This document shows, piece by piece, positions 18,986 through 26,360 of a DNA stretch of 64,000 nt. A model generated the notes under the pieces. It did not search any database. It was given only the letters and a program-made list of their open reading frames with translations, and was not told the origin of the DNA. The stretch is from Spiroplasma turonicum (GTDB taxonomy: Bacteria > Bacillota_I > Bacilli_A > Mycoplasmatales > Mycoplasmataceae). Where the stretch lies: NCBI RefSeq assembly GCF_001262715.1, contig NZ_CP012328.1, positions 186,001 to 250,000 on the forward strand, read 5' to 3'. The position numbers were made by a program, and so were the translations under genes. Positions within the stretch are counted from its first letter, which is position 1; every line of letters starts with the position of its first letter.

Positions 18986-19041
18986 TTCTTTATTTTTTTA
19001 AATTATTATTTTTTATATTATTTTTATAGAAAGTGGAAAAT

Positions 19042-20685
19042 ATGAAACAATTACAATTTTTAAAAAATATGTTAACAAGTGGTGTTAATAATGTTTACAA
19101 TAATTATCCAAAAATAGATAAGCTAAATGTATTTCCTGTACCAGATGGTGATACGGGAACTAATATGAATTTGACTTGTACAAATGGTTTGTCAGAAATT
19201 GAAAATGATAATTATGATTCAGTTTCTGATTTAATGTCTAAATTCTCAAGAGGATTAATTATGGGTGCACGAGGTAATTCGGGAGTAATTTTTTCACAAA
19301 TAGTAAAAGGATTCGCAAATGGTCTTAAGTTAGATGATTCTCTTTCAACTAAATCTTGAAAATTAGCATTTAAAAATGCTAAGGAAGTAGCATATAGTGC
19401 TGTTATGAAACCAGTTGAAGGAACTATACTTACTGTTATTAGAGAAACCAGTGAAGATTTAAACAATTTAAATGACGATATTGATCAAAAAGAACTTTGA
19501 GACTTTATTATTAAATCTTCAAAAAAATCATTAGATAATACCCCTGAACTTCTTCCTGTTTTAAAAGAAGTTGGTGTAGTTGATAGTGGTGGTTATGGGT
19601 TATTAAAATTTTTTGAAGGTATGGAAAAATATGTCAGAACTGGTAAAATAGTTAGCAAATTAAAAAAACTTGAAGAAAATCTTGGTAACAACATCGAAGT
19701 TGATAGTATTGATGAGTTTGGTTACTGTACTGAAGCAATTGTTAATTTAATGGGAGATTATATTGATAATTTAAATGTTGATATAGTAAGAAATACATTA
19801 GAAGGTTATGGAAATACTTCAATAGTGGCAGTTACAGATTCAGATATATTAAAAATTCACACACATGCTCTAATGCCTGGCCAAGTTTTAACTTATCTTC
19901 AACAATATGGAGAATTTAAATCTATAAAGGTTGAAAATATGAACTTACAAGCAGAAAAACATACTACTGCAAATGGGAAAAAAGATTCTATTATAAATGA
20001 TAAAGATAAAAAAAGAACTTTAAAAAATGATGTTGCAACAATTTCTGTTGCAAGATCCAAAGGTATTGCTGATTATCTAAAAGAGCAACTTAGTGTTGAT
20101 TATGTAATTGATGGTGGAGCGAAAATGAATCCATCCACCAATGACTTTTTAGAAGCAATCGAAAAAGTTGATGCAAAAACAGTATACATTTTTCCAAATG
20201 ATTCAAATGTTTTATTGGCAGCCAAACAAGCTAAGGATTTAGAAAAACTTTCAAAAGTTGTTGTTATTGAAACTACAACAATTCCAGAAGGTATAACTGC
20301 ATACTTAAATTTAGACCCAGATGAAAGCCCTAAAAAAAATGAATCATCAATTAATAAAGCTTTAAAAAATGTTACTTCAATCTCTATAAATAAGGCTGCT
20401 CGAGATGCTAAGATTGACAATGTTGATATAAAAGAAAATCAATATATGTCATCTGTTAATAGAAAAGTTTTTGCTGCATCTGAAAGTTTAAATGAAACAA
20501 TTGTAAAAGTTTTATCTAAAAATATAAATTCAAAAACTGAAATAATAACAATATTTACTGGTGCTGATGCAACATTTAAAGATATTAGTAATTTGCGAAA
20601 ATATCTAGATGAAAATTTTGATGTAGAGTATGAATTAATTGAAGGTGGTCAAGAAGTTTACTTATTTATCATCGGAATTGAGTAA
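19042..20685 (+). CDS. fakA: Fatty acid kinase FakA / DAK2 (DhaL) domain protein
   Basis: FakA phosphorylates fatty acids bound to a FakB (DegV-type) carrier so that exogenous fatty acids enter phospholipid synthesis via PlsX and PlsY. The 547-residue protein has an N-terminal DhaL kinase domain with FPVPDGDTGTNM and GARGNSGVIFSQI, a second motif GTILTVIRE, and DSGGYGLLKFFEG at its end; the middle and C-terminal domains with GYCTEAIVNL and IKIHTH-like LKIHTHALMPGQVL complete the FakA layout. TGA codons encode Trp in the DhaL part. ATG at 19042 is preferred; GTG at 19033 is possible. plsX lies about 4.7 kb downstream. Confidence 0.92.
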
Positions 20686-20713: not shown

Positions 20714-21208
20714 ATGAAAGAAATAATTTTAGGTGCTGGTTGTTTTTGGGGTACACAGGCCTTTTTTGATAAAATAAAAGGTGTTGAAAAAACAGATGTT
20801 GGATATGCTAATGGTTTATTAGATGAAGTTACTTACGAGGAAGTTTGTAAAGGTAATACTGAATTTATTGAAGTTTGTAAAATTACATTTGATGAGAATA
20901 TTATTAGCTTAGAAAAAATACTGGAAAAGTTTTTTAAAATAATAGACCCAACATTAGTCAATCAACAAGGTAATGATTTTGGAACGCAATATCAGTCTGC
21001 AATTTTTTTTCATCAAAGCGATGAACAAAGTTTTAAAAATATCATCAATAACTTTATTGAAAAAATGCAAATAAATTATAAAAATAAAATTGAAACAAAA
21101 GTTGATTATCTTAAAAACTATATTAGTGCAGAAGAGTATCATCAAAAATATCTTGAAAAAAATCCATATGGATATTGTCATATAAATTTAGACCTTGCCG
21201 ATGACTAG
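20714..21208 (+). CDS. msrA: Peptide methionine sulfoxide reductase MsrA
   Basis: MsrA repairs the S-form of methionine sulfoxide in proteins. The 164-residue protein carries the catalytic motif GAGCFWGTQAFF near the N-terminus (Cys9), VGYANG, the FFKIIDPTLVNQQGNDFGTQYQSAIF segment and EEYHQKYLEKNPYGYCH, all diagnostic. It has no fused MsrB domain. Start: ATG after AAGAAAGAAGAATATA. The next gene begins 15 bases after the stop. Confidence 0.96.
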   Translation: MKEIILGAGCFWGTQAFFDKIKGVEKTDVGYANGLLDEVTYEEVCKGNTEFIEVCKITFDENIISLEKILEKFFKIIDPTLVNQQGNDFGTQYQSAIFFHQSDEQSFKNIINNFIEKMQINYKNKIETKVDYLKNYISAEEYHQKYLEKNPYGYCHINLDLADD

Positions 21209-21223
21209 TTAAAGAGAAAAATT

Positions 21224-24200
21224 ATGAAAAATATATCTAAATCATACTTTAAATTATTTTTAAAATTATGAGTCGAAACAATTGGAGTAGTAGTTTTTTT
21301 GACAATTTTTACTATGCTTGTAATAGGAATGTTAGCCATACCTTTGCAAATGACAACTAAAACTGATGGTATAAAATCTCAAACAAATCTTTGAAATCAA
21401 CAAAGACAGTCAATACCAGCATTAACAAATTATTTTATTGATAAATACTTTATAAATTTTGATAAAAATAGTGATAAAAACATTTCAATCAACTCACCAA
21501 TTGGCACTATAAACATTAAAACACCAACTGATGGTTGATTTTCAAAAGAAGCTCTTAGCAAAATTGATGAATATACAGACTATGTGAGCAAAAATGATGC
21601 AAAAGATTTTTGTGGAGAATCTTCAAACAATGAAGAAAAAGATAAATGTGAAAAAGAATATGTAAAATCAGCTAAAATTGATTTTGCAAGAAGTTTAATT
21701 GATGCATTTTATTTGTATGGCGATGATAAATCACTAACCATTGCTGATGGTAGTCAGATACAACCAATTATTGTTAAAGACATATTTACAAATAATGGAA
21801 GCTGATTAAATTACAATAATTGATCAACAAGATCAGTTGAAGATTATATAATTTATCAAATTTTACAAGGTATTAATCAAAATGATGTCGATGTATCAAC
21901 ATTTATGTCTGTTGTTTTTAATGAATCCAAACCAAATACAAGTAAAGAGTTTTATCAAATATTGTTAACTTCAGCTACAAGTTTGGAAAATGATAATATT
22001 GATCTAAATAATTTAGTTTTCAGTGACAAAAACAGTAGATTACCACAAAACAACCAAGAAGTTGTAATAAATGATAGATATTCTAAATTAAAAAATATAA
22101 ATATTAATGACAAGATAATAATTAAAAATAAAGAGTTTAAAGTTGTCGGTATTGGCTCTAAATATTCTACAATTTCTCCAACTAAGTTTTCTCAGCTACG
22201 TACTTCAATTGATAATTACTTTCAAGTATATTTAAAAAACAGTTATTTTTATGAATCATCAGACCAATATTCTTTTAAAAATATGTTTCTTACAAATAAT
22301 TTTATAAGTTCTAGGCAAAATGGAAGTATATTCATATATAATTTTGAAAATTATTTAAAATTTAGAGATAAGGAATTAAATGTTAATTCTATTTTATGAT
22401 CAAATATTGACAATGCTAAACCAAATGATGAAACTGGAAATAGTAATCAAAATATTTTTAGTGTTGGTGTAAATTCTTTCAAGGATATAAGTGAACATAC
22501 TAATATAAAAGCATTAAACAATCTTTTTATAATGACCTATATTTATTTAGTAATTGGTATAATTTTATTTATACTAGGTTTTAGTTTTGTTATTTTTATA
22601 TTAAAAAAAGAAATATCAAACACAAGAAATCAACTTGGAGTTTTTAAAGCATTAGGATACAAAACAAGTCAATTGACATGAATTTTTGCTTTAAAAAACT
22701 TTGTGTCTATGTTTATATCTTTCTTATTAGGTTATTTTTTATCAATACCATTTCAGATTGATTCAGCTGAAAAGCAATTTAAATCATCAGTTACAATTGA
22801 TTTTGATTACATTTATCATGATTATATTTTCTTGACTTTTTTACTTTTAATAATTCCTTTAATATTTTCATTGTTTGCGTATTTTATAATTTATAGAGTA
22901 CTTAATGTAAAAGCTTTAGACTTAATAAACACTCAAACAAAAAGAAATAAAAGAAATTATTTAATTATTGTTATACAAATAATTTTCTTTCCAACTTTAT
23001 TATTTACATTAATAAATCACTTAATTTTAAAGTCATCCAAAAAGCATAATCGTTTATTTACATATAGATTGCAAAATGCTTTTGTTAATGATAATAAAGG
23101 GAAATTTATCCTAATTATTTCTTTATTTGGCATCAGTTCATTTCTATTTACAATGCAATTAAGAGCACTGCCTATTTTAAAAAATATGTTTGAATCTGGC
23201 TACAATATATATTCTAAAGAAGTTAATCATTATTATAATTTTAATTCTATTAATAATTTAAAATATTCTGACAATGGACTGATGAAAAATAATATAAAAC
23301 CTAATTATCAAATAAATTATAGTGACATTTCAGAAAATGAAAATTACATAGAAAATGAAATTATATACTCTAAAAATATAACTAATCTTATTAATAATAT
23401 TTCAGATTACAGAAATGAAATTTTAAAATCAAATGAAATTGAACAAATAAAAAGTTTAATACCAATTATTAGCAATTTAACATTTTTGTTATATCCATTG
23501 GAGAATAATGATGAAATTGATATTAAGACTTGAGTTCAAAATAACATTTGAAAATTAATAAGTAGTAGTTCTAATGAAGAAGAATTAAAGAAAATAATTG
23601 ATGATATGATGAAGAAACCAAATATTTTAAATATAAAACCAATTAATGAAAATAAAAACTCTGGTATATATGTAAATGACATTGCAAAATATGTTTGTGT
23701 ATCTATTCCAGGATATTCTGGAGATTGTAATGATCTTGAAAGTTTTAAAGAAGTTGCTAGAAATTATAATAATGATTTAGATTTTGGTCAACAAGTTTTA
23801 AGCTCTTTAGAAGCTGATAATACAAAACCCACTATTAGCACATCACTTAAAGATTGAATTTCAACTTTCTTAATTTCAGAAGACAAAGTCAATCCATTTA
23901 TATCTGCTAATAAAGTTTTATTTGATAAAACAAAAGAATTGTTAACTTATAATTTAAAGTTTTTTGTAGAAGACAATCAAGATATTGATTTAAGTGAATC
24001 AAATGTTGTAATGTTTAAAAGTTCAAAAGAATATGGTGATCCTAAAAACATTTTTAATTTTAATTCTATTTCTAATAGTTCATTTGAATCATTATCTGAA
24101 TTAAATGATGACTATATAAATGGATTAATATCATTTAGACTTGCAAAATTATTGAACCTTAATGTAAATGATAAGTTTATTATTAATATTGGAAACACAA

Positions 24201-25045
24201 CATTTAAACAGAAAATTAGAATTGCTGGCATTATAAGTGATAACACTTTATTGCAAGAAGTTTATTTAGATTATGATGCAGCAATGAGTAAAATTGCAAA
24301 AAATATTTCAACATCAAGCCCTGTATTTACTAATTTATATAGTACTAAAGAGGCAAGTGAAGGGGAAATAGATATAACTGATATTAGAAAATCAATTGAT
24401 ACATTTAGAAATAAAAGAGATTTATTTTCGTATGCATCAACACCTTCTAGACCATGATTAGCAACTAATTTAGATTTATACATTAATAACATTGCAAATT
24501 CTGAAAATGCCAATATTACTTTAAAAAATATATCTAAGTATTTGAACGAAAAATATTTATTGAAACCTTTTGATACACAGTTTTTTATTAATCCTGGAGT
24601 TGTTACATTTCCTATACTTAAAGAATTAATTAATTCAATATTAGGTGAAGTGGAAAAAGCAATGTTAACATATATAATCATAGATGTAATTTTACTTACA
24701 ATTCTTTTAATTGTTTTAATTAACGTAATAATAAATGATGCAATAAACATAATAACTGTTATGCGTTCATTAGGTTACACAAATAAAAAAATTAATTGAA
24801 TAATATTAGGTAGATATATTATATTTTCTTTTATAGGTTTTTTAATAGGTTATGGCTTATCATTATTAACATGGTCTATAATTCAATCAATTGTATGAAA
24901 TAGCTTTAAAGTAGTTGTTACTATACCAACTTTAATTTGATTACCATTTGTCTCTGGAATAATACTAGGCTCTATACTCTATATAGGTTGAATGACAGCC
25001 ACAATACAAATAAGAAAAAAACCTTTAACATTGTTATTAACATAA
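21224..25045 (+). CDS. Very large FtsX/MacB-type ABC transporter permease
   Basis: The frame runs for 1273 residues through many TGA (Trp) codons. It has an N-terminal membrane segment (TIGVVVFLTIFTMLVIGMLA), a long extracellular domain, a cluster of four membrane spans at roughly residues 440-600 that begins IYLVIGIILFILGFSFVIFIL and is followed by the FtsX signature GVFKALGYKTSQLTWI, another span and a second extracellular domain, and a last TM cluster that again has the signature VMRSLGYTNKKINW. That is two FtsX modules in one chain, as in lipoprotein-release and MacB-like permeases. No ATPase gene is adjacent, so its partner must be elsewhere. Extracellular parts are Asn/Ser-rich and have no recognised family. 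Confidence 0.88.
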
Positions 25046-25079
25046 TAATTATGTAAAATATTTAAAAGGAGATGGGATT

Positions 25080-25286
25080 ATGCCTTTAGCAAATAACAGT
25101 TCAAATGAATGTTGCCCTGGAGGAGCCCACAATTGCTATACTTGTAGAGTTTGCAGTGGTTCTTATCATGGTTGTAAGAGTTGTATGAAATGTATTAGTT
25201 GCATAGTATGTTATGAAAAAAAATGTCCTTGTTGCTCTGAGGGTAGTGCAAGACAAAAAGAAAATAAAGAAAAATATAAAAAATAA
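25080..25286 (+). CDS. Small cysteine-rich protein, possible metal binder
   Basis: This 68-residue protein has 13 cysteines, at positions 11, 12, 19, 22, 25, 32, 35, 38, 41, 44, 49, 51 and 52. From 32 to 44 a Cys occurs at every third residue, so CxxC motifs chain together (HGCKSCMKCISCIVC). The tail after residue 53 is polar and Lys-rich. There is no signal peptide or membrane span. AAAGGAGATGGGATT gives an excellent ribosome binding site and a terminator follows immediately, which supports a real gene. I know no named family; multi-metal (zinc, copper or iron-sulfur) binding is an inference from the spacing. Confidence 0.82.
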   Translation: MPLANNSSNECCPGGAHNCYTCRVCSGSYHGCKSCMKCISCIVCYEKKCPCCSEGSARQKENKEKYKK

Positions 25287-25313
25287 AAAAGCAATGTTTA
25301 CATTGTTTTTTTA
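25286..25313 (+). terminator. Terminator after the cysteine-rich gene
   Basis: CAATGT and ACATTG pair around two T residues, extended by A/T pairs on both sides, with a following T run. Confidence 0.8.
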
Positions 25314-25352: not shown

Positions 25353-26360
25353 ATGGAATATAAAACAATTGCTTTTGATGTAATGGGTTCAGACAAAGGT
25401 ATACCACCTGCTTTGGAAGCGGCTTGTCAAGTTTTAAATGAGTTTAATGACTTAAAGATAATCTTTGTAGGTAACCAAGAAGAAATAAAAAAGTATTTAA
25501 AAAAACTTAAGTATGACAATGATAGAGTAGAATTTTTTAATACAACTGAAATAATCAATATGACAGATAGTATTTTAGATTTTAGAAGAAAAAAAGATTC
25601 AAGTATGACTAAGGCGATTGAACTTGTTAATGAAGATAAAGCTAATGCAGTTGTTACAGGAGGAGCAACAGCACCATATATTGCAGCTTGTCATTTTATA
25701 ATAAAGGAAATTCAAGGAGTTGATAGACCTGCATTCATGCCAGTTATTCCTACAATTGTATCTAACAAAGTTACATTATTACTTGATGTTGGAGCAAATC
25801 TTGAATGTACACCAAAAGATTTAAAGACATTTGCAATCATGGCGGGTGAATATTCTAAATTAATTAATAAGATTGAAAAACCGCTAATTGGACTATTAAA
25901 TGTTGGTGAAGAAAAGTCAAAAGGACTTGAACTACATAGAGAAACTTATAAATTACTTGAAGACTCTGAAAGAATCAACTTTTTTGGAAATATTGAGCCA
26001 AGGTATGTCACTTCAGGTTTTGTAGATGTTGTAGTTACTGATGGATATACTGGAAACATTGCATTAAAAGCAGCAGAAGGTATGGCTAAAAACCTTTTGA
26101 ATGAAATAAAGTCTTCAGTTACAAAAAATTTGTTTAGAAAACTTGCTGCACTTAGACTTAGAAAAGCCTTTAAAGAAGTTGCTGCAAAATTTGATTATAA
26201 AAATCATGCTGGAGCTCTGTTAATAGGCTTAAATAAAATTGCTTTTAAGTCACATGGTTCAAGTGATAAAAGATCTTTTTATGCTACATTGAAGATGACT
26301 TACAATGCTATTGTAAATAATGTTGTAATTAGATTAAAGGAAGCACTTCTTAATGAATAA
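25353..26360 (+). CDS. plsX: Phosphate acyltransferase PlsX
   Basis: PlsX makes acyl-phosphate from acyl-ACP (or cooperates with Fak products) for phosphatidic acid synthesis. The 335-residue protein begins with [11 protein letters not shown] and contains [74 protein letters not shown] and the C-terminal [23 protein letters not shown], all conserved in PlsX. It has no TGA-encoded Trp. It overlaps rnc by eight bases, the same plsX-rnc-smc order as in many Firmicutes, although acpP is not between them. Confidence 0.96.

What the first reader, a model, noticed from the sequence alone, without database searches (positions are those of the whole stretch)
25080..25286. 68-residue protein with 13 cysteines at three-residue spacing
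Cysteines at 32, 35, 38, 41 and 44 repeat every third residue, with CxxC at 19-22-25 and a CPCC end. A strong ribosome binding site, its own terminator, and position between a large permease and plsX suggest an expressed gene. The spacing could wrap metal ions or Fe-S clusters in a way unlike ordinary metallothioneins. It could be a metal store, a redox buffer, or a small regulator.
Basis: partly seen in the sequence, partly recalled or inferred. Interest (0 to 1): 0.7.

Follow-up and report, generated by a model that had tools for sequence, protein, structure and literature searches.

The report
Spiroplasma-only cysteine-rich small protein
A real but unnamed 68-residue protein with 13 precisely spaced cysteines is conserved across spiroplasmas, and found nowhere else that was searched, and most likely wraps metal ions, so it may show how these tiny wall-less bacteria handle metals.

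Summary
The frame at 25080-25286 encodes 68 residues with 13 cysteines at the stated positions, a Shine-Dalgarno site, and a hairpin terminator. It is a gene: homologues occur in 20/20 same-genus genomes and 37/99 relatives. Synonymous change far outweighs amino-acid change (dN/dS mostly 0.03-0.2). The 42-residue core shows no indel in the members read, and most of its 13 Cys plus His17, Arg23, Ser34 and Ile39 are invariant. Pfam, NCBIfam, PHROGs, PADLOC and the PDB hold no relative. Searches of 320 order, 395 class and 392 phylum genomes found it in six genera only. Position changes: downstream of fakA or a permease and usually before plsX in most clades, beside ispG in the citri clade, on mobile DNA in three genomes. 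Genus g12 lacks it, one citri-clade genome has deleted it and two carry broken frames, so it is dispensable. Best reading: a cytosolic metal-thiolate protein (zinc or copper more likely than Fe-S) for metal buffering or thiol defence. Residues between the cysteines are conserved like enzymes in the nearer clades, suggesting a rigid domain with a specific partner. A ferredoxin-substitute role is disfavoured. Structure prediction was uninformative (pLDDT 51). Metal identity and function are inferred, not shown.

The parts
25080..25286 (+). 68-aa cysteine-rich protein gene (13 Cys, 1 conserved His), stop codon included
   Evidence: homologues in 37/99 relatives; dN/dS mostly 0.03-0.2
25110..25235 (+). 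42-residue core CC-x4-H-x-C-x2-C-x2-C-x6-C-x2-C-x2-C-x2-C-x2-C-x4-C-x-C-C, no indel in any member read
   Evidence: alignment A1, cores listed
25134..25154 (+). first CxxCxxC array, Cys 19-22-25, with invariant Arg23
25173..25211 (+). five cysteines at three-residue spacing, Cys 32-35-38-41-44, with invariant Ser34 and Ile39
   Evidence: the 8-Cys spacing 19-44 has no non-repetitive match outside the family in 392 genomes
25236..25283 (+). basic tail GSxRQxENxxKYxK, conserved in most clades, absent in the citri clade
25065..25071 (+). Shine-Dalgarno AAAGGAG, 8 nt before ATG
   Evidence: purine-rich sites also precede the homologues
25284..25313 (+). hairpin terminator overlapping the stop codon (13-bp stem, U-run)
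21224..25045 (+). FtsX-domain permease, 35 nt upstream; a 35-48 nt gap is kept in nearly all same-genus genomes examined, suggesting one transcript
19033..20685 (+). fakA (fatty acid kinase subunit A), the immediate upstream gene in genera g6, g7 and g9
25353..26360 (+). plsX, downstream neighbour

Best explanation
The gene makes a small cytosolic metal-thiolate protein. Its 13 cysteines and one histidine would bind about 3-4 metal ions (Zn(II) or Cu(I) more likely than Fe-S) in one compact, fixed-geometry domain. In the 32-44 run the side chains fall on one face if the chain has three residues per turn. It most likely buffers or donates a thiol-loving metal and protects against metal or oxidant stress in spiroplasmas. 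The gene, its conservation and its restriction to spiroplasmas are shown. Metal binding is inferred from the cysteine pattern in a protein without a signal peptide. The metal, stoichiometry and physiological role are guesses.
For: Nearly all Cys and His17 conserved with zero core indels across two divergent clades. Strong purifying selection. No signal peptide or hydrophobic segment (direct reading), so the thiols should be reduced in the cytosol. Dispensable and mobile, as expected of a homeostasis or stress trait: clean absence in g12 and deletion in G056, broken frames in G054 and G057, mobile copies in G040, G053 and G073. Varied operon partners argue against a role tied to one enzyme. A ferredoxin is encoded separately, leaving little need for an electron-carrier role.
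Against: Between g1 and g6/g7/g9 the non-Cys core residues are as conserved as FakA, PlsX and Rnc or more so (for g6: 76% against 60, 51 and 36%). A simple metal sponge would not need that; it points to a specific partner or a defined cofactor. No metal gene among the neighbours identified, no Rfam element and no match to metallothionein families in Pfam or to metallothioneins in the PDB. AlphaFold2 gave no usable fold.
Confidence: 0.5

Rival explanations
1. A zinc-structured small adaptor or regulator: the cysteines hold a rigid Zn domain whose conserved surface (Arg23, Ser34, Ile39, basic tail) binds a protein or nucleic acid partner; metal is structural, not cargo.
For: Non-Cys residues conserved like enzymes in the nearer clades, no indels, basic tail conserved in most clades.
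Against: The tail is missing in the citri clade and non-Cys identity drops to 34-38% there while the Cys stay; no constant neighbour; no similarity to any known zinc domain.
Confidence: 0.27
2. An Fe-S protein: the CxxCxxC arrays bind one or two Fe-S clusters for electron transfer or cluster delivery, for example to IspG.
For: CxxCxxC runs; adjacent to ispG, an Fe-S enzyme, in the citri clade; flavodoxin absent in the spiroplasmas tested.
Against: These genomes encode a small CxxCxxC...CP ferredoxin candidate. Genus g12 has IspG and that ferredoxin but no Cys-rich protein. No ferredoxin family matches this protein.
Confidence: 0.15
3. A secreted or modified disulphide peptide (toxin-like or RiPP precursor).
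For: Small, Cys-rich; weak chance similarity to viscotoxin (E 0.7).
Against: No signal peptide, no leader-core split, no maturase among the neighbours identified; CxxC arrays at three-residue spacing do not suit disulphide folds.
Confidence: 0.04
4. A chance open frame.
For: None beyond the small size.
Against: Conserved across 37 genomes with low dN/dS.
Confidence: 0.01

Closest known systems
Metallothioneins, including bacterial SmtA/BmtA type
   Same: Small, apparently cytosolic, many Cys plus a His, no large hydrophobic core
   Different: CxxC runs at three-residue spacing dominate, with one CxC and two CC; no detectable sequence match; linker residues and all core spacings conserved, unlike typical metallothioneins (comparison from general knowledge)
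Small [4Fe-4S] ferredoxins (Fer4_13 type, also encoded in these genomes)
   Same: CxxCxxC motif, small size
   Different: No CxxCxxC...CP pattern, 13 Cys, no profile match; a separate ferredoxin candidate is present
Cys-every-third-residue arrays in viral contigs (L108, L133)
   Same: CxxCxxC periodicity
   Different: Hundreds of residues of near-tandem repeats, not one fixed 42-residue core

Membership tests
Metallothionein | match to a curated metallothionein profile or a solved metallothionein | tested here: not met
   no Pfam or NCBIfam match up to E 10; no metallothionein among PDB hits
Metallothionein | small size with high Cys content | tested here: met
   13 of 68 residues
Metallothionein | binds several Zn, Cd or Cu ions in metal-thiolate clusters | not testable with these tools
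   needs purified protein
Ferredoxin (Fe-S electron carrier) | CxxCxxCxxxCP or CxxCxxC...CP cluster motif or Fer4 profile | tested here: not met
   sequence; no Fer4 family match
Ferredoxin (Fe-S electron carrier) | co-occurs with IspG where no other carrier exists | tested here: not met
   ferredoxin candidate present; g12 has IspG without the Cys-rich protein
Zinc-ribbon or other known zinc domain | profile match or confident fold | tested here: inconclusive
   no profile match; model pLDDT 51

The most novel reading that the evidence does not exclude
A new metalloprotein fold confined to spiroplasmas: five cysteines in line at three-residue spacing form a linear thiolate face that holds a polymetal cluster of a kind not seen in metallothioneins, with a specific client protein that receives the metal.
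Probability: 0.15. Interest if true: 0.75.

Novelty: new variant of a known kind. Interest (0 to 1): 0.5.

Why it matters
Few metal-handling proteins are known in Mollicutes (general knowledge). A spiroplasma-restricted Cys-rich family, strongly conserved yet lost in some lineages and carried by mobile DNA, gives a single small testable protein for metal or thiol homeostasis in insect symbionts and plant pathogens. No curated family searched covers it, and in one plasmid record no gene is listed at its position.

Tried and rejected
Ferredoxin-substitute for IspG: rejected as main reading after a small ferredoxin candidate was found. Lipid-metabolism role from fakA/plsX synteny: weak, since the gene moves to ispG and mobile contexts. 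Co-distribution with fib and ispG: follows the Spiroplasma lineage, with g12 a counterexample. Weak class-level hit L070 (G243): E 0.003 over 27 positions, not found by the other searches, taken as chance. Viscotoxin similarity: chance. NifU_N is near-universal and uninformative. No paper on this protein was found. PlsX and FakA trees were too open to fix the order of gains and losses.

Full report
Observation. The frame 25080-25286 (+) encodes 68 residues with 13 cysteines at exactly the stated positions. It has no TGA codon, so the reading does not depend on the Mollicutes code. AAAGGAG precedes the ATG by 8 nt. A 13-bp hairpin with a U-run follows the stop. It sits between an FtsX-domain permease and plsX. 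The permease gap is 35 nt, so co-transcription is likely; a promoter of its own is not shown.

Is it a gene? Yes. Homologues occur in 37 of 99 relatives, including all 20 same-genus genomes. Pairwise dN/dS (Nei-Gojobori, table 4) is mostly 0.03-0.2, though 0.21, 0.23 and 0.37 occur in three of sixteen pairs. In the A1 alignment 16 columns are invariant, among them Cys 11, 12, 19, 22, 25, 32, 38, 41, 49 and 52, His17, Arg23, Ser34 and Ile39; Cys35 and Cys44 are nearly invariant and Cys51 is replaced in a few. No member read shows an indel inside the 42-residue core.

Distribution. Searches of 395 class, 392 phylum and 320 order genomes found the family in six genera only: g1, g6, g7, g8, g9 and one f9 genome. 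Named members are Spiroplasma. These largely match the genera with a full-length fibril protein, except that g12 has fib and ispG but no Cys-rich protein; there fakA abuts plsX. In the citri clade G056 has a clean deletion beside ispG, and G054 and G057 carry frame-broken copies, unless those are sequencing errors. G040, G053 and G073 carry an extra or sole copy in mobile-like surroundings; G053 and G073, in different families, share 88% DNA identity over 1.6 kb there, which suggests recent transfer. PlsX and FakA trees were too open to order gains and losses.

Context. In g1 the gene follows the permease by 35-48 nt in nearly all genomes examined. In g6, g7 and g9 it follows fakA. In the citri clade it follows ispG. 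The changing partner argues against a role tied to one enzyme.

What it resembles. Pfam, NCBIfam, PHROGs and PADLOC gave nothing, and the PDB only chance hits. The exact 8-Cys spacing occurs in 392 genomes only in the family, apart from one TGT microsatellite. Matches in viral contigs are Cys-dense or repetitive frames, none with the full core. AlphaFold2 gave pLDDT 51, so no fold search was made. No Rfam element lies nearby.

Testing the Fe-S idea. Next to ispG, and with flavodoxin absent in the spiroplasmas tested, the protein might have been an electron donor. A small CxxCxxC...CP ferredoxin candidate is however present in genomes of g1, g8, g9 and g12 (below the Pfam cut-off, but with the motif). 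Genus g12 has IspG and the ferredoxin but not this protein. The Fe-S reading is lowered, not excluded.

Mechanism. Best supported is a cytosolic metal-thiolate protein, Zn or Cu more likely than Fe. Shown: the gene, its conservation, its restriction to spiroplasmas in the collections searched, its absence or decay in some lineages, and mobile copies. Inferred: metal binding and the buffering or protective role. In tension: in the nearer clades the residues between the cysteines are conserved like enzymes, which favours a rigid domain with a partner.

Noticed in passing
L043 7738-9309, L046 7388-8952: Similar mobile segment (88% over 1.6 kb) with the Cys-rich gene and a 275-aa membrane protein of no Pfam or PHROGs family, shared by a citri-clade genome and one of another family: recent transfer.
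   Followed up: partly
L072 (pSciBLH13-1, NZ_CP047429.1): A 123-kb S. citri plasmid carries fib, deoxyribonuclease IV and a dual-specificity phosphatase beside a copy of the Cys-rich gene; no gene is listed at that position in the PLSDB table, which is incomplete.
   Followed up: partly
L108 5281-9078; L133 (- strand): Viral contigs encode proteins of about 300-950 residues with Cys at every third residue over long stretches (CxxCxxC...), possibly a repeat solenoid.
   Followed up: no
L090-L093; G000:C1:1012084-1012236: A small CxxCxxC...CP ferredoxin candidate occurs in spiroplasmas with IspG; flavodoxin was absent in those tested.
   Followed up: partly
G015:C1:424287-425815: The fib match is split into two pieces in one same-genus genome.
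   Followed up: no
window 20714-21208: msrA lies just upstream of the permease here; its cluster has no other member among the neighbouring loci compared.
   Followed up: no
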